A stretch of 48,127 nt of DNA, taken from assembly GCA_029268285.1 (NCBI GenBank), contig JAJUGG010000002.1, forward strand, positions 1-48,127. Reading direction: 5' to 3'. Positions 3,218 to 42,885 of the stretch are shown here, in pieces. Numbering within the stretch: position 1 is the stretch's first letter; every line of letters starts with the position of its first letter. The notes below the pieces were generated by a model. It was not told the DNA's origin. It was given only the letters and a program-made list of their open reading frames with translations, and made no database searches. This DNA is from Ectothiorhodospiraceae bacterium (GTDB lineage: Bacteria; Pseudomonadota; Gammaproteobacteria; Nitrococcales; AK92). The position numbers and the translations under genes were made by a program.

Positions 3218-4024
3218 GTGGCAAGGATTATCGTGGTCACCTCCGGCAAGGGGGGCGTGGGTAAGACCACAACCAGTGCAGCATTCAGCACCGGCCTGGC
3301 CAAGGCCGGGCATAAAACGGTCGTTATCGACTTCGACGTCGGCCTGCGCAACCTCGACCTGATCATGGGCTGCGAGCGCCGGGTGGTGTACGACTTCGTT
3401 AACGTCATTAACGGCGAAGCGAATCTCGGGCAGACGCTGATCAAAGACAAGCGCATCGACAACCTATTCATCCTGCCGGCCTCCCAGACGCGCGACAAGG
3501 ATGCGCTGACGCTGGAAGGCGTCGGCAAGGTTCTGGAAGAGCTCAGTCAGGAGTTCGACTACATCGTCTGCGATTCGCCGGCAGGCATCGAGCGGGGCGC
3601 TCTGCTAGCGGCTTACTATGCCGACGAAGCGATCGTGGTCACCAACCCGGAGGTGTCCTCGGTGCGCGATTCCGATCGCGTGCTCGGGATACTGTCCAGC
3701 AAGACCCGCCGGGCCGAGAAAGGCGAGGAGCCGATCAAGGAGCACTTGCTGCTGACGCGCTACTCTCCGGCCCGGGTCCAGAAGGGCGAAATGCTCAGTG
3801 TCGAGGACGTGGGGGAGATTCTCGCTATCGATCTGTTGGGCGTTATCCCCGAGTCCAAGAGCGTACTGAACGCCTCCAACGCTGGCGTTCCTGTCATCCT
3901 TGACCAGCAGAGCGACGCCGGTCAGGCCTACGAGGACGCCGTTGCCCGCTTCCTGGGCGAGCAGCGTCCGCACCGCTTTTTGTCCGAAAAGAAAGGATTC
4001 CTAGGACGGTTGTTCGGGAGCTAA
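3218..4024 (+). CDS. minD: Septum site-determining protein MinD (ATPase)
   Basis: Membrane-associated ParA/MinD-family ATPase that carries MinC to the membrane and oscillates under MinE control to place the division site at mid-cell. The deviant Walker A motif SGKGGVGKTT is at residues 9-18, with the signature Lys11. The MinD hallmark DFDVGLRNLDL follows, and Walker B-like DYIVCDSPAG lies mid-protein. The last 11 residues (KKGFLGRLFGS) form the amphipathic membrane-targeting helix. The start is GTG, 7 bp after a clear GGAGGT site. It is separated from minE by 3 bp, so the two are almost surely co-translated. Confidence 0.97.
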   Translation: MARIIVVTSGKGGVGKTTTSAAFSTGLAKAGHKTVVIDFDVGLRNLDLIMGCERRVVYDFVNVINGEANLGQTLIKDKRIDNLFILPASQTRDKDALTLEGVGKVLEELSQEFDYIVCDSPAGIERGALLAAYYADEAIVVTNPEVSSVRDSDRVLGILSSKTRRAEKGEEPIKEHLLLTRYSPARVQKGEMLSVEDVGEILAIDLLGVIPESKSVLNASNAGVPVILDQQSDAGQAYEDAVARFLGEQRPHRFLSEKKGFLGRLFGS

Positions 4025-4027
4025 GAC

Positions 4028-4300
4028 ATGAATTTTCTGAATTATTTCCGCTCCCAAAAGAAATCCAGCGCCGCAGTGGCGAAGGAGCGGTTACAGATCA
4101 TCGTGGCCCACGAGCGCACCACGCGCGGCGGCCCCGAGTATCTGCCCATGCTCAAGGAAGAGTTGCTGGCGGTGATCAGTAAGTACGTCGAAGTGGACCG
4201 CGAGGCGGTTAAAATTCAGCTTGATCGCGACGGAGACTGCGAAGTGCTCGAGCTGAACGTCGTGCTGCCCGAAGTCGAGTCGCAGGCAAAACTGCGCTGA
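4028..4300 (+). CDS. minE: Cell division topological specificity factor MinE
   Basis: Activates the MinD ATPase and drives the Min oscillation that keeps division at mid-cell. The 90-residue length is normal. The N-terminal MNFLNYF forms the membrane-binding helix, KERLQIIVAHERTTR (about res. 18-32) is the MinD-contact segment, and the remainder is the topological-specificity dimer domain ending in VVLPEVE. It is the last gene of minCDE and is followed by a long hairpin. Confidence 0.96.
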   Translation: MNFLNYFRSQKKSSAAVAKERLQIIVAHERTTRGGPEYLPMLKEELLAVISKYVEVDREAVKIQLDRDGDCEVLELNVVLPEVESQAKLR

Positions 4301-4340
4301 TTCCTGCTTTTAGGACGCCTGCCTTAGCGTAGGCGTGGTG

Positions 4341-4377
4341 CTCGCTCGACGGCTCGATTGTGGAGCCGCCGAGCGAG
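4341..4377. terminator. Hairpin between convergent minE and mltD
   Basis: Two 15-nt arms (4341-4355 and 4363-4377) pair with one mismatch around a 7-nt loop. It sits in the 84-bp gap between converging genes, so it probably ends transcripts from both sides. There is no U-tract on either strand. Confidence 0.5.
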
Positions 4378-4384
4378 GTAGCGC

Positions 4385-6016
4385 TTAGATGCTGTCCTGC
4401 TGCTTGGTTACGTCAACCAACAGCGTCAGGCGTTGGCCCGGTTGCAAATAACCTTTCTCCGGCAAGCCGTTCCACTGCCGCAACTGCTTTACGCTGACCT
4501 TGAAGCGCTTAGCGATTTCGTACAGCGAGTCGCCTTTGCGGACGGTGTAATACACCCGCTGCGAGTGCGGAATGGGCAGGCTTTTGCCTTTCTGGCCCTT
4601 GGCCCAGATTACCAGGGTTTGACCGGGGCGCAGCGTGTCGCGCGGCGCCATGCCGTTCCAGCGGCTGAGCTCGTCCACGCTGACCCCGTGTGCGCGAGCG
4701 ATATCCCAGAGCGTGTCCCCGGGCTGTACCACGTGGCTGCGCTTGTCGCCGCCGCGATTGCGGTTCTGAATGGCGGCAAGACGCTGACTGACGCTCAGCA
4801 CATAGTCTTCAGCGGCCGCAGTTGCCGTGGGGACCAGCAGGTGTTGCCCGGCACGGATGATGTCGCCGCGTAGCTGGTTCGCTTCGCGGATGACTTCAGT
4901 CGTCGTGTTGTACTGCTTGGCGATGTGGCTCAGCGTCTGGCCTTGCTGCACCTTGTGGCGGTTCCACTGCACGCGCTTATGAGCGGGCAGGGCGGCGAGG
5001 GCCTCCTGGAACTCGGTAACTTTATCGATCGGAAGCACCAGCCGATGCGGTCCTTCGGGGTCCGTTGCCCAACGGTTGTAGCCGGGATTGAGGCGATAGA
5101 TATCTTCGATGGTCAGGTCGGCCAGCTCCGCGGCGAGAGCAAGATCGATCTGCGAGTCGATATCCACGACTTCCAGGTACGGTTCGTCGGGAAGGCTGCG
5201 CAGGCTCAGGCCGTAAGCCTCGGGGGCGGCGACGATATCCCGAATGGCGAGCAAGCGAGGCACGTAGCCCTCGGTCTCCCGAGGCAATTGCAGGTTCCAG
5301 AAGTCAGCGGGCTTGCCGGCAGCCTTGGCATTGCGCACCGCGCGGCCGACCGTGCCCTGGCCGGAGTTGTAGGCTGCCAATGCGAGCTGCCAGTCCTCGA
5401 AGCGGTTGTAGAGCTGCTGGAGGTAGTCCAGCGCGGCGTGGGTAGAGGCGATGACGTCGCGGCGGCCGTCATACCACCAGTTTTGCTTCAAGCCGAAGTG
5501 CAGCCCGGTGGCCGGGATGAATTGCCACAGCCCGGCGGCACGGCCCGGCGAATAGGCAAAGGGCTGAAAAGCGCTTTCGACTACGGGCAGTAGCGCGATC
5601 TCCATCGGCATGCCGCGCTTTTCGACTTCCTCGACGATGAAGTGCAAATAGGGCTCGGCCCTATCCACGACGCGATTCATGTAACTGGGCGTGCGCTCCA
5701 GAAACTGCAGCTCCGCCTGAACTCGCGGGTGGTCGCTATGCGGCAGTTGGAAACCGGCACGCATGCGCTCCCAAATATCGGCGGGGGGCGCGGGGATAGG
5801 CTCTTCCAGCAGCGCCGCCTTGCCGGCATCCGTCAGCACCTCTGCAGGTGCGGACGCGATGTCGAATGTCGAATCCGAGGTGCTGCCCTCTAAGGCGGCC
5901 GTAGAGGCGGCGCCGGCAGTATTTTGTGCTTCGTGGTTGTGGGCGACCGATGCGCAGGCACTGGCTGTTAGTACCGCGATCAAGGACAGGCTGAGGCGGT
6001 TGATATGCACCCCCAT
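4385..6016 (-). CDS. mltD: Membrane-bound lytic murein transglycosylase D-like protein with three LysM domains
   Basis: Cleaves the MurNAc-GlcNAc bond of peptidoglycan to give 1,6-anhydro products. The SLT domain (about res. 135-260) holds the catalytic Glu147 in PVVESAF, then GLWQFIPATG and LALAAYNSGQG. Three LysM cell-wall-binding modules follow at about 354-396, 428-471 and 489-532. The chosen ATG (543 residues) has an ideal ACGGAGGT site; an upstream ATG would add 20 unrelated residues. The N-terminus is an export signal ending TASA-Cys21, which suggests a lipoprotein although the residue three before the Cys is not the usual Leu. E. coli MltD usually has two LysM repeats, so this is a longer form. 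It lies downstream of gloB in the common gloB-mltD order, but is transcribed away from it here. Confidence 0.9.
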   Translation of the reverse strand: MGVHINRLSLSLIAVLTASACASVAHNHEAQNTAGAASTAALEGSTSDSTFDIASAPAEVLTDAGKAALLEEPIPAPPADIWERMRAGFQLPHSDHPRVQAELQFLERTPSYMNRVVDRAEPYLHFIVEEVEKRGMPMEIALLPVVESAFQPFAYSPGRAAGLWQFIPATGLHFGLKQNWWYDGRRDVIASTHAALDYLQQLYNRFEDWQLALAAYNSGQGTVGRAVRNAKAAGKPADFWNLQLPRETEGYVPRLLAIRDIVAAPEAYGLSLRSLPDEPYLEVVDIDSQIDLALAAELADLTIEDIYRLNPGYNRWATDPEGPHRLVLPIDKVTEFQEALAALPAHKRVQWNRHKVQQGQTLSHIAKQYNTTTEVIREANQLRGDIIRAGQHLLVPTATAAAEDYVLSVSQRLAAIQNRNRGGDKRSHVVQPGDTLWDIARAHGVSVDELSRWNGMAPRDTLRPGQTLVIWAKGQKGKSLPIPHSQRVYYTVRKGDSLYEIAKRFKVSVKQLRQWNGLPEKGYLQPGQRLTLLVDVTKQQDSI

Positions 6017-29306: not shown

Positions 29307-30728
29307 CTAGCTGAAGAGGCCGTGCAGAAACCAATCGCGGCTACGCTGTTCCTGAAAGACCCACACACGCTCGCCGCGCGGGTTTTGCGCAACATAATAG
29401 TCCCGGCGGACGTCATGCCCGTCCCACCAGCCGCTCTCGATGCGTTCCGGGCCGCGCCGCAGCACCAACGGGCCGTGCCAGTGCGGCTGCCCATGCGAAC
29501 AGCTCAGGCGCTCAGGCCGGGGGAGTAACCATAAAGGCCGTTCGGGGGGAGGCTCCGTCGCCGAAGGCTCGCCCGGCGAGACATAGCGCCACGCCCGCTC
29601 GGGGCGATGCTCCGAAACCATCCCGAGGCCGAAGACGGCGCTGTCGCCCATGCGCGCGCTCAAGCGCTCGATTAGTTGCGTCCATACATTTGTGGCGCTG
29701 GCAGTATCCTGAAACAGCGATGGCGCGTCCGGGGTGTACGGGTGAATCTGCGGAGCCTGCAGGCGCAGAGCGCGCACTGGTGCGGGCAGCTTCACGCGAT
29801 CCAGGCGCTCGCGCGCCAGGGCCAGTAAATGATCGGGGGCGCGGCCGGGTGCGGCGAGGCCCAGTGTGAACGCTGTAGCCGGTGGCTGCGCGTGCTCCAG
29901 TACAACGTGCAATTGCTGAACACCGCTATCCAGCCCTAGCAGAAAGCCGCCGAGTTCGAGCAGCAAGCGTCGCAGTGGGAAGGCGAGGGCGGTGGCGGAT
30001 TCGGTTTCAGCCGGAAGCTCCAACTCGCTCTCGAAGCGTGGCTTCGGGAGATAGGGCCGGCGCGGATCCGGCACCCGGCCGAGTGCCCGGTCCAGCAGTG
30101 TGGCGAGTTCCCGGCCGAGGCGCCGGGCGAGTCCGGCGCGCGGTAGCGCGAGCAGCCCATTCAGATCCTTTATACCCAGCCCTTGCGCCGCCTTCAGCGT
30201 GGTCGGCGCAAGCGCCAGCGCTGCGACGGGGAGCAAGCCTAGACGGGCAGGCAGCTCTTCGTGCCGAATAACGGGCTTTTCATCGCCCCCAAGATTCAAT
30301 AGCCAGGCCGCGGACGGCGTGGGCGCAACCGCAAGCCGGCCGTTGTAACCCAAATCCTGTAAGCCGCTGCGAAAGCCGGCCAGCAGCTTGTCCAAGCCTT
30401 CGTAGAGCTTAAGGCTGCCGCCGATTTCAAGCAGCAATCCTGACGGCGGCTGCAAGCTCACCAGGGGCGAGTACGCAAATGCCCAGTCCGCCAGCCGCCG
30501 TAGTGCATGCTCCTCGCGCGCCGGCTGACGTTGCCGAAAACGTAGCTCGGGTGCCAGCGCCTGGGCCGCGCTCAGGGGCAAGCCGGGCAGCACGCCGGCA
30601 GCGTCGGCCGCGGCGTTGGCGAGCAAAACCGTGCGGCCGTCGGCCACTGCGAAGGGAGCCTTGCTGGAGGCGGCTCGCTCGAATACGGCTAGCGGCAGAT
30701 CGGGAATGCGCAGGGCCAGCCAGAGCAT
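29307..30728 (-). CDS. imuB: ImuB, Y-family DNA-polymerase-like mutagenesis protein
   Basis: A 473-residue Y-family polymerase homologue: MLWLALRIPDLPLAVFERA, then ANAAADAAGVLPGLPLSAAQAL and the little-finger-like region. The catalytic acidic residues of active Y-family polymerases are not kept (e.g. DVDCFFAS-type motif is replaced by ALRIPDLPLAV), as in ImuB, which instead bridges ImuA, DnaE2 and the beta clamp. The RecA-NT-like C-terminus is present. It lies 36 bp after imuA; LexA control is expected from the operon. Confidence 0.9.
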   Translation of the reverse strand: MLWLALRIPDLPLAVFERAASSKAPFAVADGRTVLLANAAADAAGVLPGLPLSAAQALAPELRFRQRQPAREEHALRRLADWAFAYSPLVSLQPPSGLLLEIGGSLKLYEGLDKLLAGFRSGLQDLGYNGRLAVAPTPSAAWLLNLGGDEKPVIRHEELPARLGLLPVAALALAPTTLKAAQGLGIKDLNGLLALPRAGLARRLGRELATLLDRALGRVPDPRRPYLPKPRFESELELPAETESATALAFPLRRLLLELGGFLLGLDSGVQQLHVVLEHAQPPATAFTLGLAAPGRAPDHLLALARERLDRVKLPAPVRALRLQAPQIHPYTPDAPSLFQDTASATNVWTQLIERLSARMGDSAVFGLGMVSEHRPERAWRYVSPGEPSATEPPPERPLWLLPRPERLSCSHGQPHWHGPLVLRRGPERIESGWWDGHDVRRDYYVAQNPRGERVWVFQEQRSRDWFLHGLFS

Positions 30729-30764
30729 GCGAGGCTCGTCGATCCGTAAGGGGGCGCGGGCGTG

Positions 30765-31541
30765 CTAGCGGTTCGGTCGGGGTGGTTCGGTCGGGCGCTG
30801 ACCGCCGACGCTGCCAGGCGGTAGCGGCAGGTCGAGCTGAGACAATCCGCGCACGCGCTGACTACGTGCGTGCAGACTCAAGCCGCCGCGGGGCGCCGGC
30901 GCCTCGGCGGCGGGGAGGCGGCGTTCGAGATCCAGCGACACTTCCTGTTGCGCAAGCGCGCCGCGGCATTTGAGAAAACGAATATCGATGCCCTTGTCGC
31001 TGGGGTCGAGTTCCAGGCGTAGCGCAGCAGTGGACGTTTGCGCCGCTTCGGCGCGGCTGCGGAACAGAATGCCCCAGCTCTTGCCGGTTTCGGCAGCCAG
31101 CTGCAGCCGACGCAGGGCGCGCTCGTCGATCCCCTGCGGCCAAGCCAGCACGGCGCCGCAGGTGCCGGCGCGCAACGCCTGCTCCAAGGCCCACAGCGAA
31201 TCTTTGTCGGCCTTGGGGTGAATCAGTAGCAGTCGAGAGAGATCCACGCCCTGGGCCGCCAGTGCGGGAGCGTAAGGAATATAGGGCGGCGCGATCATGG
31301 CGACCCAGCGGCCCTGGCGGCTCAATTGGGCCAGTGCCGGCATGAGCAGGCGTAGCTCGCCGATGCCGCTGTGGTCATGAAGAATCTCCGTGAGCGTGCC
31401 CGAGGGCCAGCCGCCGCCGGGTAAGGCGTGGTCCAGGTCGTCATAGCCGGTAGCGATGTAGTGACGACCGACTTCGGACTGCGGCATGCCGCCGCGCCAG
31501 ATGCCAGGCTGCTGCAGGAGTTCGTCGAGAGCGTTGTTCAT
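30765..31541 (-). CDS. imuA: ImuA, RecA-like mutagenesis protein
   Basis: A 258-residue RecA/SulA-like protein of the SOS translesion module. GGGWPSGTLTEILHDHSGIGELRLLMPALAQL replaces the RecA Walker A region in a degenerate form, and the C-terminus QVRGLSQLDLPLPP-type stretch is family-like. It is thought to act with ImuB and DnaE2 in error-prone replication. The start MNNALDELLQQP (31541) is chosen; the ORF extends 13 codons upstream, and no strong ribosome site was found. It lies 64 bp after lexA with no SOS box of its own. Confidence 0.88.
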   Translation of the reverse strand: MNNALDELLQQPGIWRGGMPQSEVGRHYIATGYDDLDHALPGGGWPSGTLTEILHDHSGIGELRLLMPALAQLSRQGRWVAMIAPPYIPYAPALAAQGVDLSRLLLIHPKADKDSLWALEQALRAGTCGAVLAWPQGIDERALRRLQLAAETGKSWGILFRSRAEAAQTSTAALRLELDPSDKGIDIRFLKCRGALAQQEVSLDLERRLPAAEAPAPRGGLSLHARSQRVRGLSQLDLPLPPGSVGGQRPTEPPRPNR

Positions 31542-31605
31542 GGCCGGCCTCGTGTTGTTCTTCGCGGTAAGGGGCAGCAAGTTCTTTGAAGTACAGGCGC
31601 TGTGT

Positions 31606-32211
31606 TCAATCGAGGTTCGGGCGAATTACACCGACCCCAAGTCCTTCGATAACAAGCGGTTCCTTCCGCAAATCCACCTCTATCGGTGAAAAGTCCGGGT
31701 TTTCGGGCAGGAGCTGGACCACGTGCCCGCTCTTCTGAAAACGCTTGACCGTGACTTCGTCGTGCAGGCGCGCGACGACGATCTGACCGTTGCGCGCTTC
31801 GTGAGTCTTGTGTACCGCCAGCAGATCGCCGTCCAGGATGCCGACATCGCGCATGCTCAGGCCGCGAACCTTGAGCAGATAGTCTGCGCGGGGCTCAAAC
31901 AGATCCGGCGTGAGCGGATAGCGGCGATCGATATGCTCCTCGGCTAGCAAGGGGCTGCCGGCGGCGACTTGGCCGATGACCGGGAGGCCTTCATCTTCCT
32001 CTTCTAAAAGGCGGATGCCGCGCGAGGTGCCGGGCTGCAGCTCGATGACGCCCTTGCGCGCCAGCGCGCGCAGATGATCTTCGGCGGCATTGGCGGAGCG
32101 AAAGCCCAGCGTGCGCGCGATCTCGGCGCGCGTGGGCGGATAGCCGGTCTCGGCCACGAAGCTGCGGATTAGCTCCAGAATCTGGTTTTGGCGAGGCGTG
32201 AGTTTTCGCAT
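31606..32211 (-). CDS. lexA: LexA repressor
   Basis: Repressor of the SOS response. The 201 residues contain a winged helix (1-70), the self-cleavage bond Ala84-Gly85 (QVAAGSPL), catalytic Ser119 (RGLSMRD) and Lys156 (TVKRFQ). All align with E. coli LexA numbering. On DNA damage, RecA filaments trigger cleavage. The start MRKLTPRQ is certain by family; an upstream extension of 39 codons is spurious. A perfect SOS box lies 20 bp upstream, giving autoregulation and control of imuA and imuB. Confidence 0.97.
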
Positions 32212-32231
32212 AAAAGCTTTCCTAATCGATC

Positions 32232-32251
32232 TACTGTTAATATATACAGTA
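32232..32251. promoter_or_regulatory. LexA operator (SOS box) in front of lexA-imuA-imuB
   Basis: The site has CTGT-N8-ACAG with extended TA...TA flanks and an AT-rich core, differing from the E. coli consensus by little. It covers the likely -10 region (TATATA/TATATT on the minus strand), with a -35-like TTGCCC about 16-18 bp beyond. It is 113 bp from relA, whose promoter it may not affect. Confidence 0.9.
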
Positions 32252-32312
32252 ATCGTTTCTGGGGGCAAGCGTGCCTGATTCAAGTGGCTGCCACCTGGCA
32301 CAAGAACGGCGC

Positions 32313-32318
32313 TACAAT
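32313..32318 (+). promoter_or_regulatory. Possible -10 element of relA
   Basis: TACAAT at 32313-32318 is a good -10 in the lexA-relA gap, 46 bp ahead of the relA ATG. No good -35 is seen at 16-18 bp. Confidence 0.35.
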
Positions 32319-32363
32319 GCTCGCCCATGCTTGCGCCCCGGGCGGAGTTATTGAGGAGCGGCC

Positions 32364-37932: not shown

Positions 37933-38913
37933 ATGAATAGCAAGATTACAGGACTGGCCAAAACGGCCGCTTACTCCAGCCTTCTGGCTTTTACCCTGGC
38001 CGGTGGCGCCGCGTTTGCCCAGGATCAGCAGGCGAATACGCAGCAGCAGTCCCAACAGGCGGCTTCGGGGCAGAGCGAAACTCAAGGTCGCGCCGAAACG
38101 GAGACCGCATCAGCTCAGGGGGAGTCCGCAAGCGCCGGCGAAACGGCCGGGGCCGAGAGCAGCGGTGAAACCGCTTCCGTATCCGGCCTGACCGAATCCG
38201 AAGTGGTGGTCGAGCAGCAGGAGCCCAGTGTGGACGTCCAGCAGCGCGAACCTGAAGTGGTGATTCAGCAAAAAGCGCCGGACGTGCAGGTACGTATGCC
38301 TGAGCCCGAGGTGGCTGTCGAGCAGCAGGAGCCGGAGGTTCGGATTCAGGAGCAGCAGCCGGACGTAGCGGTGAAAACGGCTGAGCCTCAGACCGAAGTG
38401 CAGCAGGCTGAGGGGGCTGAGGTCAAAGTATTGCCGCCTGAGGAAGGTGGCGACGTAGCGGCGGTTGAAGGTGAGCAGACCGACGAAGCGCGACAGCAGG
38501 ATCAGCAGGAGCAGGAAACTACGGCCATGACGCCGCCGGAGCCCGCGTCGGAAGCTGAAACAACGGCCACCACCGAGACTACCGACGAGCCGCAGATCGC
38601 CGACGAGGCGATGACGGCCAGTGCCGAGCAGATGGTCGGCCGCGACGTCTACACTATTGACGGCGAGCAGGTCGGCGGCGTTGAGGAGGTCGTGCGCGGT
38701 ACGGCCGATCAGCAACTCTATCTCGTGGTTGCCTACGGCGGCTTCCTGGGGCTCGGCCAAGAGCAGGTCGTTGTGCCGATGGACCAGGCGGAAATGCAGG
38801 AAGATCGGGTGATCATCACCGCGCCGCTCGGGGATCAGGGCCTTGAGCAAATGGCGACTTACGATGAGAGCCAGTACGAACCGATCAGCGGCGACCAAGG
38901 TCCGGTGGGCTAA
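37933..38913 (+). CDS. Exported PRC-barrel protein with a 9-residue Val/Gln/Glu/Pro repeat
   Basis: A 326-residue exported protein: signal peptide (1-29, ending AFAQ), a Gln/Ser/Ala/Glu-rich low-complexity part (30-85), then about eight 9-10-residue units of the form V-x-V/I-x4-P-x (about 88-170) ending VKVLPPEE, another acidic Thr/Glu/Gln linker, and a PRC-barrel-like domain (about 228-310, MVGRDVYTIDGEQVGGVEEVV). PRC barrels bind RNA, proteins or pigments. The repeat region would form an extended beta-rich or disordered surface. The start has a strong AAAGGAGG site. No enzymatic motif. It is followed by a terminator and by a gene with the same repeats. Confidence 0.8.
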   Translation: MNSKITGLAKTAAYSSLLAFTLAGGAAFAQDQQANTQQQSQQAASGQSETQGRAETETASAQGESASAGETAGAESSGETASVSGLTESEVVVEQQEPSVDVQQREPEVVIQQKAPDVQVRMPEPEVAVEQQEPEVRIQEQQPDVAVKTAEPQTEVQQAEGAEVKVLPPEEGGDVAAVEGEQTDEARQQDQQEQETTAMTPPEPASEAETTATTETTDEPQIADEAMTASAEQMVGRDVYTIDGEQVGGVEEVVRGTADQQLYLVVAYGGFLGLGQEQVVVPMDQAEMQEDRVIITAPLGDQGLEQMATYDESQYEPISGDQGPVG

Positions 38914-38932
38914 AGGCCGCTGATGCGACCTA

Positions 38933-38960
38933 AGCCGGCCGTGAGGCCGGCTTTTTGTTT
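38933..38960 (+). terminator. Intrinsic terminator between the PRC-barrel and repeat-protein genes
   Basis: AGCCGGCC (38933-38940) and GGCCGGCT (38945-38952) form a perfect 8-bp stem with a 4-nt loop, followed by TTTTTGTTT. The next gene starts only 19 bp later, so read-through or a separate promoter must supply it. Confidence 0.85.
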
Positions 38961-38978
38961 CTCGAGGAGGACGATTCG

Positions 38979-39338
38979 ATGACACGGAAGTCGACGAAAC
39001 GCATATCCGTTTTCTTCGCATGCTCTGGCGCGCTAGTGCTCGGGCTGGGTGCCGGCGCTGCTAATGCGCAGCAAGGCGCCGAGCGGGAGCCGGCAGTCGG
39101 CGTGCAGCAGGCCGAGCCCGAGGTCAATGTGCAAACCGCGGAACCTAATGTGCGCGTGATACCGCCCAGCAGCGAGCCGAATGTACAGGGTGACGAGAAC
39201 GTAAACGTGCGCGTGTTACCGCCGGAAGGGCAGGGCGCTCAGATCGAGCGGGGCTCCGGGAGCGCGCAGCAGGCGGGGCAGGCTAGCCAGTCGAATCCCG
39301 GCAGCGCCGCGCCCGGCAACACTGGCCAGTCGCAGTAG
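38979..39338 (+). CDS. Small exported protein sharing the PRC-barrel protein's repeat
   Basis: A 119-residue exported protein: signal peptide ending ANAQ, then repeat units VGVQQAEPE, VNVQTAEPN and VRVIPP, a spacer and again VRVLPPEG. This matches the preceding gene, including the V-K/R-V-L-P-P cap. The tail is Gln/Ser/Gly-rich and disordered. It looks like a duplicated repeat region without the PRC barrel. The start has a GAGGAGG site. No function is known. Confidence 0.75.
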   Translation: MTRKSTKRISVFFACSGALVLGLGAGAANAQQGAEREPAVGVQQAEPEVNVQTAEPNVRVIPPSSEPNVQGDENVNVRVLPPEGQGAQIERGSGSAQQAGQASQSNPGSAAPGNTGQSQ

Positions 39339-39412: not shown

Positions 39413-40051
39413 TCAGCCCTGAGAGCTTTGCGCACCGACTGCCGTGGCGCCGAGTGTATCGGCAACGAAGGCCACGGTTTCTAGTACGGCTTTCTCCAGA
39501 GCCGCATTGGCGGCATGAACCGCGCCCTGGGCGTCCTCGCTAGGCGCAGGCACGGAGATCTGGATAAGCTTAGAAGCTGCCAGGCCGCCCGCGCCGCGTT
39601 CCGATAGCTGCACATGGAGGCTAAGCTCCAAGCTGCTGCTACTCCCTTCCTGAAAAACCTGCCGCAATTGGACGATCTCGGTGTTGAGACGATAGGTGCC
39701 GACCTGCCCCGAGCCGCCGCGAAGCACGGCCTGAAACAGCCCTGAGCGCTCGAAACCGGCCGCGAGGGCGGATTCGATCATGCGCGCCGGCGTATCCACC
39801 CAACGGCTGTTACGGTAGTGGTTGAGCCTGTAAGGCGTACTGCTGTAAACGATGGCGCGGCTGTCGTAACCGGCCTGAGCGCTGGGGCGGGCAATGCTCA
39901 GCGTTGCCTTGAGCACGGCGTAGCCAGGGGTAGCCGTATTGCTGATGCCGAGCTGGAATACATCAGCCGCGCCGTTGCGCTTGGGCGTCGGCACACAGGC
40001 CGCGGTCAGCGCGAGGCAAAGCAGCACCAGGATTAAGCGTAGCGTGCTCAT
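39413..40051 (-). CDS. ABC-type transport auxiliary lipoprotein (PqiC-like)
   Basis: A 212-residue lipoprotein: signal ending LTAA-Cys19. The mature part has the PqiC/DUF330 (ABC_trans_aux) features VLKATLSIARPSAQAGYDSRAIVYSS and TYRLNTEIVQLRQVF, probably forming an outer-membrane or periplasmic partner of the MCE complex. It is the last gene of the mla-type operon, 3 bp after the MlaD-like gene. It stands where mlaC and mlaB are found in other operons. Confidence 0.88.
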   Translation of the reverse strand: MSTLRLILVLLCLALTAACVPTPKRNGAADVFQLGISNTATPGYAVLKATLSIARPSAQAGYDSRAIVYSSTPYRLNHYRNSRWVDTPARMIESALAAGFERSGLFQAVLRGGSGQVGTYRLNTEIVQLRQVFQEGSSSSLELSLHVQLSERGAGGLAASKLIQISVPAPSEDAQGAVHAANAALEKAVLETVAFVADTLGATAVGAQSSQG

Positions 40052-40054
40052 GGC

Positions 40055-40978
40055 TTATTCTCCGGGACCAGGAGGAGGCAGCTCGCGGCCGAAGATCAAG
40101 CTGTTGGGGTCCTCGCGCAGTTCCTCGGACAGGCGGGTCAGGTTCTCCGTCAAGGCCTGCATCTGGCCGATCAGCGCGTTGATCTGAGGCAGCGTCACGT
40201 GCGTGAAGTCGCGTATGCCGGTTTCGCCGCTCTCGGACAAAGTGCGGAAGCGCACGCTGGTCGCTTCGAGCTCCTGGGCGAGACTCTGGAATTCTTCCAA
40301 GGTCGTGCGGAAGGTGCTCAAGGTTTCCGGTAGCCCGTCGGCGGCTTGAGCGCCGGCTTCGAACATGCGCTCAGCATGCTCAAGGCTGCGGTCAATGCGT
40401 TCGCGATTGTCGTTCAGCGTGGCCGTCACGCCTGCCACGTTGTGCAGGATGGTTGAAATCGCGGCCTGATTCTCCGGACTCAATATCTGGGAGACGCGAT
40501 CGTTCAATCCGCTGAGCGTGGCAACACCCTCGGTTAGCGCGTTGTCCAGGCGCTCGAACAGGGATGGCGTGCTTTCGATGGTCGGGTAAGGCGGTTCGTT
40601 TTCCGAGACCAGGGGCAGCGAGTCGCGTGTGCCGCCGGTCAGCTCGATGTTGAGAATCCCTGTAACGCCTTGAGTCGCCAGCTGCGCGCGGGTGTCGACC
40701 TTGATCGGCGTGCCTTCGACGATGGCAACTACCACGTGCACGCGCTCCGGATCGTTGGAGGCAATGTCCAATTGGCGCACTTCGCCTACCGGCACGCCGC
40801 GATAGCGAACCGGCGCATTCACGTACAGGCCGGAAACGGATTCGCTGAAATAGATCGAGTACAGCCGATAGTCGGGCGACGTAATGCCCGAACCCATCCA
40901 CAGCGCCAAGCCGATCAGCGCGAGTCCGAGCAGGACCACGAACAGGCCGACGGCCCCATAAGCTACGCGGGTTTCCAT
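40055..40978 (-). CDS. MlaD/MCE-family substrate-binding protein
   Basis: A 307-residue membrane-anchored protein: one N-terminal helix (about 8-30), an MCE domain (about 38-115, YFSESVSGLYVNAPVRYRGVPVGEV), then a long helical region (about 140-290) likely to form a coiled coil. MCE rings bind and shuttle phospholipids between membranes. It overlaps the ATPase gene by 16 bp and precedes the PqiC-like gene by 3 bp. Confidence 0.92.
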   Translation of the reverse strand: METRVAYGAVGLFVVLLGLALIGLALWMGSGITSPDYRLYSIYFSESVSGLYVNAPVRYRGVPVGEVRQLDIASNDPERVHVVVAIVEGTPIKVDTRAQLATQGVTGILNIELTGGTRDSLPLVSENEPPYPTIESTPSLFERLDNALTEGVATLSGLNDRVSQILSPENQAAISTILHNVAGVTATLNDNRERIDRSLEHAERMFEAGAQAADGLPETLSTFRTTLEEFQSLAQELEATSVRFRTLSESGETGIRDFTHVTLPQINALIGQMQALTENLTRLSEELREDPNSLIFGRELPPPGPGE

Positions 40979-41736
40979 ACTTCCTCTCTGGCGCGTTGCA
41001 TGCGTGCGCCGTGGAAATAAGCTCGAACCTCCTCGATCTCGGACTCCACCAGGCGTTGAACCGGCTCGTCGGCGAGCACTCGTCCTTGGCCGAGAAAGGC
41101 GACGCGATCGGTCGTGCGCCAGATCGAATCGATGTCGTGAGTGATCATGACCACGGTTAGTTGTAGCAACTCCCTCAGTTCAAGGATCAATTCGTCAAAA
41201 GCCGCGGCGCTGACGGGGTCGAGCCCTGATGTGGGCTCGTCCAGGAACAGGATCTCCGGATCCAGCGCCAGCGCGCGCGCCAGCGCAGCGCGCTTGACCA
41301 TGCCGCCGCTGAGCGCGCTGGGGTATTTATCGGCCGCGTCGTCCGGCAGCCCCGCCAGGCGGATCTTCATAAGTGCGATCTTGCGAAGCAAACCCTTACT
41401 AAGGCGGGTATGTTCGGCCAGCGGCACGCCGACGTTCTCCGCCACTGTCATTCCGGTAAACAGCGCCCCGTGCTGGAACATTACCCCGATGCGCCGCCAT
41501 AGATCGCGGGTTTCGGCCGGCCTGAGCTGATCGATGCGCTGGTCGAACAGGCGGATCTCGCCGGCGCGCGGCTTGGCCAGCATCACGAGGTGGCGTAGCA
41601 GCACCGTCTTGCCGGCGCCGCTGCTGCCGATAATGGCCACGATGTCGCCACGCTGCACGACGAGGTCCAGCCCTCGGTGAATCTCTTTGTTGCCGGCGCG
41701 GGTCGTCAGGCCGCGCGCTTCGATGATGGCCGTCAT
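40963..41736 (-). CDS. Phospholipid-transport ABC ATPase (MlaF-like)
   Basis: ATPase of the lipid transporter, 257 residues. Walker A GSSGAGKTVLLRHL, Q-loop MFQHGALF, signature LSGGMVKRAALARAL, Walker B ILFLDEPTSGLDP, and H-loop MITHDI. The ABC signature LSGGM is typical of MlaF. It lies 9 bp after the permease gene and overlaps the MlaD-like gene. Confidence 0.95.
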   Translation of the reverse strand: MTAIIEARGLTTRAGNKEIHRGLDLVVQRGDIVAIIGSSGAGKTVLLRHLVMLAKPRAGEIRLFDQRIDQLRPAETRDLWRRIGVMFQHGALFTGMTVAENVGVPLAEHTRLSKGLLRKIALMKIRLAGLPDDAADKYPSALSGGMVKRAALARALALDPEILFLDEPTSGLDPVSAAAFDELILELRELLQLTVVMITHDIDSIWRTTDRVAFLGQGRVLADEPVQRLVESEIEEVRAYFHGARMQRAREEVWKPA

Positions 41737-41745
41737 GAAGCCTTC

Positions 41746-42885
41746 CTAGAGCCCCGCCAGATTAAAGGCAATCGAAAACAGCGCATCGGCCGTAATGACC
41801 AGAAAGATGCTTTGCACCACGCTGGTGGTGGTGGCGCGGCCGACCGCTTCTGCGCTGCCGCCGACCTGGAAGCCCTGATAGCAGCCGATGAGAGTTATCA
41901 GCATGGCGAACACCGGCGCTTTAGCGATGCCTACCCAGAAGTTGCTGGGACTTAGCTCCTGCGGGATGCGCTCCAGGAATATCGCCGGGCCAATGCCGAA
42001 CATGGCATCGGCGACTAGCGCTCCACCCAGCAGGCCGAGTATGTCCGCAAACACCGTCAACAGGGGGAGCGCGACCAGCAGAGCCAGGAACTTCGGAAGC
42101 ACCAGCATTTCGAAGGGTGTAATGCCCATCGTGCGCAGGGCATCGATTTCTTCCGTGATTTTCATGGTGCCGAGTTGAGCCGCGTAAGCCGAGCCGGTTC
42201 GGCCAGCCACGACGATCGCGGTCAACAGCGGCGACATCTCACGAAGCATGGTGATGGCGACGAGTTCGACTATAAAGATGTTGGCGCCGTACTCGTCCAA
42301 GGGAATTCCTCCCTGATAGGCGATCACGATGCCCATGAGGAACGATAGCAGGCCGACGATCGGCAACGCGGTCGCGCCCGCTCGCTCGACTTCCTTGGCA
42401 ATTTGCCGCCAGCGCAGCCGCCAGGGGCGCATGAGGCGCGGCAGCATATCGAGCGTGAAACGGCCGATGAAGTCTAGAAAGCTCCAGCTGTTCGCGATGC
42501 CCTGCACCGTTCGTTGCCCCAACCGCTGTAGCGCTCGAAGCCGTCGCTGCAGCGGGGGCGTCGGCCGATCCAGGCGCTCCACTAACTGAAGCAAACCGGC
42601 GTGTGCTGCCGGGACGTTCCCCAGTTGGATCTCGCCGCCGCAACGGCGCACCTGCTCGAGAAGATGGCGGAGGAGAGCTGCGCCGGTGGTGTCAAGCGCT
42701 TGCACCTCCGTGCTGTGCAGTATCCATCGCCCGCCTTGCCAACGGTGGCGGCGCAATCGGTTTTCGATTTCGCCCAGCCGCTCGGCGCGCCAACTGCCGC
42801 GCAAGCGTATTTCCCGGCGTTCGCTATCAAGCTCGAACTGAGGTGCGTGAGATGCACGTACGTTTGTGTGGTAATTTTTGGACAT
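41746..42885 (-). CDS. MlaE-family permease with fused N-terminal STAS domain
   Basis: A 379-residue permease of the lipid ABC transporter. Residues about 10-110 form a STAS-type domain (HSTEVQALDTTGAALLRHLL), the role played by the separate MlaB protein in E. coli. The membrane part starts near 155, with LMGIVIAYQGGIPLDEYGAN, LTAIVVAGRTGSAYAAQLGTMK and EIDALRTMGI, the MlaE signatures. This fusion is known in some proteobacteria and explains the absence of mlaB. It is first in the operon. Its start (ATG 42885) lacks a strong ribosome site. Confidence 0.93.
   Translation of the reverse strand: MSKNYHTNVRASHAPQFELDSERREIRLRGSWRAERLGEIENRLRRHRWQGGRWILHSTEVQALDTTGAALLRHLLEQVRRCGGEIQLGNVPAAHAGLLQLVERLDRPTPPLQRRLRALQRLGQRTVQGIANSWSFLDFIGRFTLDMLPRLMRPWRLRWRQIAKEVERAGATALPIVGLLSFLMGIVIAYQGGIPLDEYGANIFIVELVAITMLREMSPLLTAIVVAGRTGSAYAAQLGTMKITEEIDALRTMGITPFEMLVLPKFLALLVALPLLTVFADILGLLGGALVADAMFGIGPAIFLERIPQELSPSNFWVGIAKAPVFAMLITLIGCYQGFQVGGSAEAVGRATTTSVVQSIFLVITADALFSIAFNLAGL

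What the first reader, a model, noticed from the sequence alone, without database searches (positions are those of the whole stretch)
37933..39338. Two adjacent exported proteins built from one 9-residue repeat with a shared cap
The PRC-barrel protein carries about eight V-x-V/I-x4-P-x units and ends the run with VKVLPPEE; the next gene carries the same units and VRVLPPEG without a barrel. Both have signal peptides and Gln/Glu-rich disordered flanks. This looks like duplication of a repeat array and may form an envelope scaffold not described under a family name I know.
Basis: partly seen in the sequence, partly recalled or inferred. Interest (0 to 1): 0.5.

Follow-up and report, generated by a model that had tools for sequence, protein, structure and literature searches.

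The report
Paired exported nonapeptide-repeat proteins, one barrel-capped
Two neighbouring bacterial genes make exported proteins built from the same nine-residue repeat, one carrying an extra barrel domain; related proteins, and the same two-gene layout, occur in distant bacteria, where the repeat is about as well conserved as the barrel or better, so it is probably a working part and not just a spacer.

Summary
Gene A (37933-38913) encodes a signal peptide, eight to nine 9-residue units, VKVLPPEE and a C-terminal PRC barrel. Gene B (38979-39338) encodes a signal peptide, three regular units plus degenerate ones and VRVLPPEG, without barrel. Neither run length arose in 20,000 shuffles. A third, barrel-less copy lies elsewhere in the genome. 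The array is not private: 40 array proteins came from 38 named loci, mostly alphaproteobacterial; 35 show a barrel motif after the array. The pair layout recurs in a distant gammaproteobacterial genus: 9 of 59 genomes have barrel+array followed, 20-63 bp on, by a barrel-less array gene (EF-hand match in the five examined). There the arrays are the best-conserved part (0.68-0.70 identity; barrel 0.48; N-termini about 0.2) and each unit keeps its own identity (0.68-0.72 against about 0.31 between units of one protein). This argues against a passive linker. Some relatives, but not A or B, reach Pfam's cut-off for the uncharacterised DUF6470 over part of the array. Array structure is unresolved: low confidence in one AlphaFold2 run, regular strands in another of a kind AlphaFold2 may overpredict. 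Likely role: periplasmic array-based co-assembly with the barrel as binding head; inferred, not shown.

The parts
37933..38913 (+). gene A, 326 aa: signal peptide, disordered Q/E/A-rich flank, nonapeptide array, cap, acidic linker, PRC barrel
   Evidence: 3rd-position GC 0.72; proteins of the same layout elsewhere
37933..38019 (+). A signal peptide, MNSKITGLAKTAAYSSLLAFTLAGGAAFA|Q
   Evidence: by inspection; A29 at least 90% conserved and Q30 invariant in A2
38200..38421 (+). A array, about eight 9-residue units
38422..38445 (+). A cap VKVLPPEE
   Evidence: cap only in the three own-genome paralogs among 55 proteins
38623..38829 (+). PRC barrel domain of A (PF05239)
   Evidence: E 3.1e-11; AF2 pLDDT blocks 88-96 over aa 231-320; Foldseek best 3htr_A E 3.7e-6
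38932..38953 (+). intrinsic-terminator-like hairpin with T tract between A and B
   Evidence: 9 pairs; 2 overlapping sites found, 1.6 expected by shuffling; fold -32.6 kcal/mol for 75 nt, z -4.07
38979..39338 (+). gene B, 119 aa: signal peptide, short array, cap, G/S/Q tail, no barrel
38979..39068 (+). B signal peptide, ...GAANA|Q; no lipobox seen
   Evidence: by inspection
39090..39206 (+). B array, three regular units and degenerate ones
   Evidence: aligns ungapped to A aa 125-163
39207..39230 (+). B cap VRVLPPEG

Best explanation
A and B are exported (Sec-type), soluble periplasmic proteins of a widespread, unnamed architecture: a nonapeptide array with consensus P-[QE]-V-T-V-[QE]-Q-[PA]-[EQ], usually followed by a PRC barrel. 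Shown here: the architecture, its spread, its mostly fixed 9-residue spacing, the duplication within this genome, the recurrence of the barrel+array / barrel-less array gene pair in a second lineage, and conservation of the array about equal to the barrel or above it. Inferred: the array is a working assembly surface (extended or short-strand), not a filler; neighbouring array proteins co-assemble through like arrays; the barrel (or, in the other genus, the partner's EF-hand) is the head that binds a protein or ion partner in the envelope; and in the window B is a short barrel-less partner made by copying the distal half of A's array with its cap, probably expressed at a lower level behind the terminator.
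For: Run length beyond chance. Third copy and ungapped B-A alignment with the shared cap. Of 40 array proteins from 38 of 42 named pattern hits, 35 have the barrel motif C-terminal to the array; Pfam PRC is matched by 34 of the 40 members of A2, which includes A and B. Of 531 unit spacings of 8-12 residues, 445 are exactly 9. Pair layout: 9 of 59 genomes of genus g276 have both genes, same strand, 20-63 bp apart; the five second genes scanned all have an EF-hand match and no PRC match. Conservation across those 9: first gene array 0.68, barrel 0.48, N-terminus 0.21; second gene array 0.70, EF-hand 0.50, N-terminus 0.22; orthologous units 0.68/0.72 against 0.31/0.33 between units of one protein. 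A weak EF-hand match (below cut-off), array and barrel occur together in one Acuticoccus protein (L111:3608), which suggests that the split parts can work together.
Against: No experiment, no localisation data, no partner. B lacks the EF-hand and is much shorter, so it may be a different case from the g276 partner; its array with cap scores lower with g276 second genes (mean 70.9) than with first genes (80.8). The terminator-like site between A and B weakens the operon reading. Among the other array loci fetched no barrel-less partner gene was seen; L111 has three tandem array+barrel genes (stored DNA 8 kb or less per named locus). In seven other groups the array is more conserved than the barrel in four and slightly less in three, among them the two largest (0.56 against 0.60 in Paracoccus, 0.63 against 0.66 in the Roseomonas group); in two close pairs the pre-array flank is also high (0.83, 0.88). 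The AlphaFold2 model of A gives the array pLDDT 40-54 and no strands.
Confidence: 0.4

Rival explanations
1. The array is a passive, disordered periplasmic spacer that holds the barrel away from its anchor, comparable in role to Pro-rich spacers such as that of TonB (recalled); B is then a by-product without a function of its own.
For: Pro 16%, Gln 17%, Glu 11% and almost no aromatic residues in the counted units; low pLDDT and no secondary structure in the array of full-length A; array lengths vary between species.
Against: In g276 array identity is far above the flanks and above the barrel, and in the larger other groups far above the pre-array flank; unit-specific residues are kept between species; spacing is mostly exactly 9; barrel-less array genes persist in 9 of 9 array-bearing g276 genomes confirmed.
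Confidence: 0.25
2. The array is a folded, regular beta structure (solenoid or beta roll), and the proteins are rigid rods.
For: Array-only AlphaFold2 run on L091 with 39 arrays: pLDDT blocks 91-96 over residues 21-120, 5-residue strands every 9 residues.
Against: pTM 0.34; no PDB match below E 0.15 and Z at most 3.8, to long hairpin stems; best BFVD match 1.5e-3 at rmsd 42.8; AlphaFold2 is reported to give confident, unrealistic beta-solenoids for repeats (PMC11795689: abstract and section 3.2.8 read); no 18-residue super-period across 68 arrays; almost no glycine in the units.
Confidence: 0.2
3. B is a decaying or non-functional fragment left by local duplication of A.
For: Short, partly degenerate array; beyond the repeat and cap no relative of B was found; terminator-like site upstream.
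Against: Intact frame with start, a GAGGAGG motif upstream, signal peptide and preserved cap; third-position GC 0.76 as in A (0.72); the analogous second gene is maintained in g276.
Confidence: 0.15

Closest known systems
PRC-barrel domain (Pfam PF05239); nearest solved chain 3htr_A, Rhodopseudomonas palustris PRC-barrel protein
   Same: A's C-terminal domain matches by sequence (Pfam E 3.1e-11; phmmer to 3htr_A 2.1e-5) and predicted fold (Foldseek 3.7e-6)
   Different: A adds a signal peptide and a nonapeptide array; B has no barrel; the PRC functions recalled (RimM, reaction-centre H) are not those of periplasmic array proteins
DUF6470 (Pfam PF20074; function unknown; recalled as the YviE family of Bacillus)
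   Same: Profile positions about 10-52 (in some proteins 122-176) match arrays of relatives over the cut-off, e.g. L058 second gene 46.6 bits, L111 45.4, L091 42.4; B. subtilis is among the control genomes that ring for the family
   Different: Best stretches cover only part of the profile; window A 15.0 bits and paralog C 21.7 bits are below the 28.9 cut-off, and B has no hit. yviE lies next to flgL in B. subtilis (passage of PMC4054197)
RTX nonapeptide repeats (recalled)
   Same: 9-residue tandem period in exported proteins
   Different: RTX is Gly/Asp-rich; these units are V/P/Q/E-rich with glycine 0.8%
PRC-barrel members of alphaproteobacterial general-stress regulons
   Same: A PRC-barrel gene is listed in a regulon table for EcfG of Sphingomonas melonis Fr1 (PMC6599016) and with RpoE2 for Sinorhizobium meliloti (PMC6180224); passages only
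   Different: Whether those proteins carry the array was not checked

Membership tests
PRC-barrel (PF05239) | profile match above the gathering score, gene A | tested here: met
   43.6 bits, cut-off 21.2
PRC-barrel (PF05239) | same feature in gene B | tested here: not met
   no Pfam match up to E 1
PRC-barrel (PF05239) | PRC-barrel fold, gene A | tested here: met
   AF2 barrel pLDDT blocks 88-96 and Foldseek to 3htr, 8onw and RC-H chains; predicted structure only
DUF6470 (PF20074) | profile match above the gathering score in the window proteins | tested here: not met
   A 15.0 bits, C 21.7 bits, B none; cut-off 28.9
DUF6470 (PF20074) | match over the whole 178-position profile in relatives | tested here: not met
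   best stretches cover about 35-55 positions in the proteins scanned singly
RTX repeat proteins | Gly/Asp-rich GGxGxDxUx units (motif recalled) | tested here: not met
   unit table, glycine 0.8% of residues
EF-hand array partner as in g276 | EF-hand in the second gene | tested here: not met
   B has none; present in the five g276 second genes scanned
Array + PRC-barrel architecture described here | signal peptide, run of nonapeptide units, C-terminal barrel | tested here: met
   gene A; 35 of 40 named array proteins have the barrel motif after the array, and 52 of 55 collected pass a crude signal-peptide pattern
Periplasmic or envelope scaffold | localisation and assembly in the envelope | not testable with these tools
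   needs experiment

The most novel reading that the evidence does not exclude
The nonapeptide array is itself an assembly module: barrel-capped and barrel-less array proteins made side by side co-assemble through their like arrays into a heteromeric envelope structure, a two-gene system present in at least two gammaproteobacterial lineages and not named in Pfam or NCBIfam beyond a partial DUF6470 match.
Probability: 0.2. Interest if true: 0.65.

Novelty: new variant of a known kind. Interest (0 to 1): 0.45.

Why it matters
Many bacteria export PRC-barrel proteins whose long middle part is easily dismissed as low-complexity linker. Here that part is about as conserved as the barrel, in one genus more so, and turns up without the barrel in adjacent genes. 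If it is an assembly or binding module, a widespread class of 'PRC-barrel domain-containing proteins' has been named after its less informative half, and a small two-gene pair offers a direct way to test it.

Tried and rejected
(1) Genome-contig scan with A as query: 140 pattern stretches, no confirmed relative; the repeat DNA pattern then worked. (2) tblastn of A and B in plasmids: no match; the low-complexity filter may hide arrays. (3) Viral contigs with the repeat pattern: 0. (4) 18-residue super-period: A's DNA shows a 54-nt repeat, but across 68 arrays lag 2 does not exceed lags 1 and 3 (excess above 0 in 25 of 68; 939 of 1000 shuffles reach the observed mean), so rejected. (5) Conserved neighbour genes: in the list (best 30 clusters) none recurs widely outside within-genus synteny. 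(6) Barrel tree to date the pair: few columns, open forks; A sits on a long branch among gammaproteobacterial and mixed rows at 83% support, not used. (7) Fold search of the array model: no convincing match. VIA-align compared 145 chains; the absence of beta-solenoids from its list proves nothing. (8) Literature: no paper in the held library holds any of five repeat strings or DUF6470; the listings showed no paper that appeared to be about the array. Passages of PMC5906684 were seen and not used. (9) A1 profile hits set aside on reading: G181 (KTNKAE repeat), G461 (short VERPAPQV stretch), G681 and G677 (composition that looks like a wrong frame); G073 and G587 showed no run of units in the filtered listings. 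That leaves 3 of 369 and 7 of 398, with G000 and G005 in both. (10) Of 42 named loci, L075, L087 and L103 gave no array frame under my filter, and L076 was dropped as identical at its C-terminus to L061; 38 loci with 40 arrays remain. The weak row L063 is among the 55 rows and was left out of the unit statistics (54 rows).

Full report
Observation. Reading the window confirms two same-strand genes, A at 37933-38913 (326 aa) and B at 38979-39338 (119 aa), both starting with what looks like a cleavable signal peptide (by inspection). A carries eight 9-residue units and a ninth ending in VKVLPPEE, then an acidic linker and a PRC barrel (PF05239, E 3.1e-11). B carries three regular units, degenerate ones and VRVLPPEG, and no Pfam or NCBIfam match up to E 1. 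Runs of 7 and 3 spaced units were not reached in 20,000 shuffles each (maximum 2).

Duplication. The genome holds a third array gene, C, on another contig (L043, frame 5132-5965, start taken as 5327; 65% identity to A over the array; no barrel; acidic tail). B aligns without a gap to A from aa 124 through the cap, and in a ranking against all collected array proteins its array+cap scores best against A (107) and C (102), next 93. The cap string is found only in A, B and C among the 55 proteins. The first 26 residues of B's array alone are no closer to A or C than to others, so the stretch with the degenerate units and the cap carries the evidence. A local duplication of A's distal array is the simplest account.

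How widespread. A profile of seven arrays (A1) matched 5 of 369 genomes of the class sample, 11 of 398 of the phylum sample and 4 of 54 of the order. On reading, 3 and 7 of the first two are convincing. None of the three other genomes of the window's family matched A1, although they have matches to A's barrel. A DNA pattern for the repeat hit 42 stretches in named genomes, mainly Alphaproteobacteria (Paracoccus, Roseomonas relatives, Azospirillum, Microvirga, Acuticoccus) with a Marinobacter, a gammaproteobacterial MAG, a Desulfobulbaceae MAG and two Terriglobia stretches without an array frame. After dropping three loci without an array frame and one duplicate, 40 array proteins remain, of which 35 have the barrel motif C-terminal to the array, two run off the stored DNA and three lack the motif after the array (L098 has PRC matches, the best at its N-terminus). 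Spacings of 8-12 residues were counted, and 445 of 531 are exactly 9; consensus P-[QE]-V-T-V-[QE]-Q-[PA]-[EQ]. N-terminal companions in a few members include DUF4142, DUF305 and EF-hands.

The pair elsewhere. In genus g276 (unnamed handle, another family of the same class), 10 of 59 genomes matched A1. One match (G677) looks like a wrong-frame artefact; the other nine all have two adjacent array genes on one strand: 256-290 aa with array and barrel, then, after 20-63 bp, 170-191 aa with an EF-hand-like stretch and array but no barrel. Pfam was run on five second genes (EF-hand matches in all, over a cut-off in one; no PRC). The first gene of G803 (L148), shown singly, reaches PRC at 21.6 bits against a cut-off of 21.2; in the others the barrel is read from the alignment. 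In the window B lacks the EF-hand and a terminator-like hairpin lies between the genes (38932-38953); a GAGGAGG motif precedes B.

Conservation. Across the nine g276 pairs, mean pairwise identity is 0.68 for the first-gene array against 0.48 for its barrel, 0.57 for the linker and 0.21 for the N-terminus; in the second gene 0.70 for the array, 0.50 for the EF-hand, 0.19 and 0.22 for linker and N-terminus. Units at the same place in different species are 0.68 and 0.72 identical; different units of one protein 0.31 and 0.33, which is also the baseline set by composition. The conserved residues are therefore unit-specific and not just V and P. In seven other groups the array is more conserved than the barrel in four and slightly less in three, among them the two largest (Paracoccus 0.56 against 0.60, Roseomonas group 0.63 against 0.66); the pre-array flank is 0.14-0.29 in five groups and 0.83-0.88 in two close pairs. 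I set the region borders by hand or by simple rules, and gaps count as mismatches. A disordered spacer would be expected to behave like the flanks, and in the more diverged groups it does not.

Structure. AlphaFold2 with 40 sequences puts A's barrel at pLDDT 88-96 (block means, aa 231-320) and the array at 40-54 without strands. An array-only run (first sequence L091, 39 sequences) gives 91-96 over residues 21-120 with a 5-residue strand every 9 residues, but pTM 0.34, no convincing PDB or BFVD match and no 18-residue period across the family. [quoted passage not shown] abstract and section 3.2.8). I treat the array's fold as unresolved. The nearest solved structure of the barrel is 3htr.

Known families. 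A is a PRC-barrel protein by every test made. The array is not an RTX repeat. Pfam's DUF6470, of unknown function, matches part of the array in many relatives (23 of 40 members of A2 and 8 of 14 of A3 at E 0.01 or better), over the cut-off in some; in the proteins scanned singly the best stretch covers 35-55 of 178 positions. A, B and C are below the cut-off. NCBIfam does not name the array. PRC-barrel genes are listed in alphaproteobacterial stress regulons (passages of PMC6599016 and PMC6180224), not checked for arrays.

Mechanism. I commit to an exported array module whose arrays are the working part, with barrel or EF-hand as head and with adjacent array proteins acting together. The steps shown are architecture, spread, spacing, duplication, pair recurrence and conservation; co-assembly, localisation and function are inferred. 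A weak EF-hand match, array and barrel in one Acuticoccus protein (L111:3608), against their split over two genes in g276, supports joint action; a second Acuticoccus paralog (L111:46) showed no EF-hand match. Whether B is a true partner or a dwindling duplicate cannot be decided without sister genomes or expression data.

Noticed in passing
L034:773-10541 and L037:237-7617: Two genomes of different families share an island with several PRC-barrel genes, a long array+barrel gene among them and a gene that reads like a matrixin-type metalloprotease with a PRC-like tail (my reading).
   Followed up: partly
L111:46-4843: Acuticoccus yangtzensis has three tandem array+barrel genes; one (3608-4843) has weak EF-hand matches at its N-terminus, another (46-1221) none.
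   Followed up: partly
L061, L077, L082, L090, L092, L095, L099, L101, L107, L115: Arrays of Paracoccus and kin carry a cysteine in one unit (VEQCAP or VQQCAP), kept across species (L061).
   Followed up: no
window 38189-38333: A's array DNA has three 37-nt copies 54 nt apart (two units), a hint of growth by pairs of units not seen family-wide.
   Followed up: yes
window 39413-42885, - strand: Directly downstream and convergent lie genes that read like an Mla/MCE-type lipid transport set (my reading, untested).
   Followed up: no
window 29307-32328, - strand: Genes that read like a LexA-ImuA-ImuB SOS mutagenesis set upstream (my reading, untested).
   Followed up: no
L043:5327-5965: Third paralog C ends in an acidic tail with a repeated G-L-F-Q motif (DVGLFQDEEQQ...DDGLFQ) instead of a barrel.
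   Followed up: no
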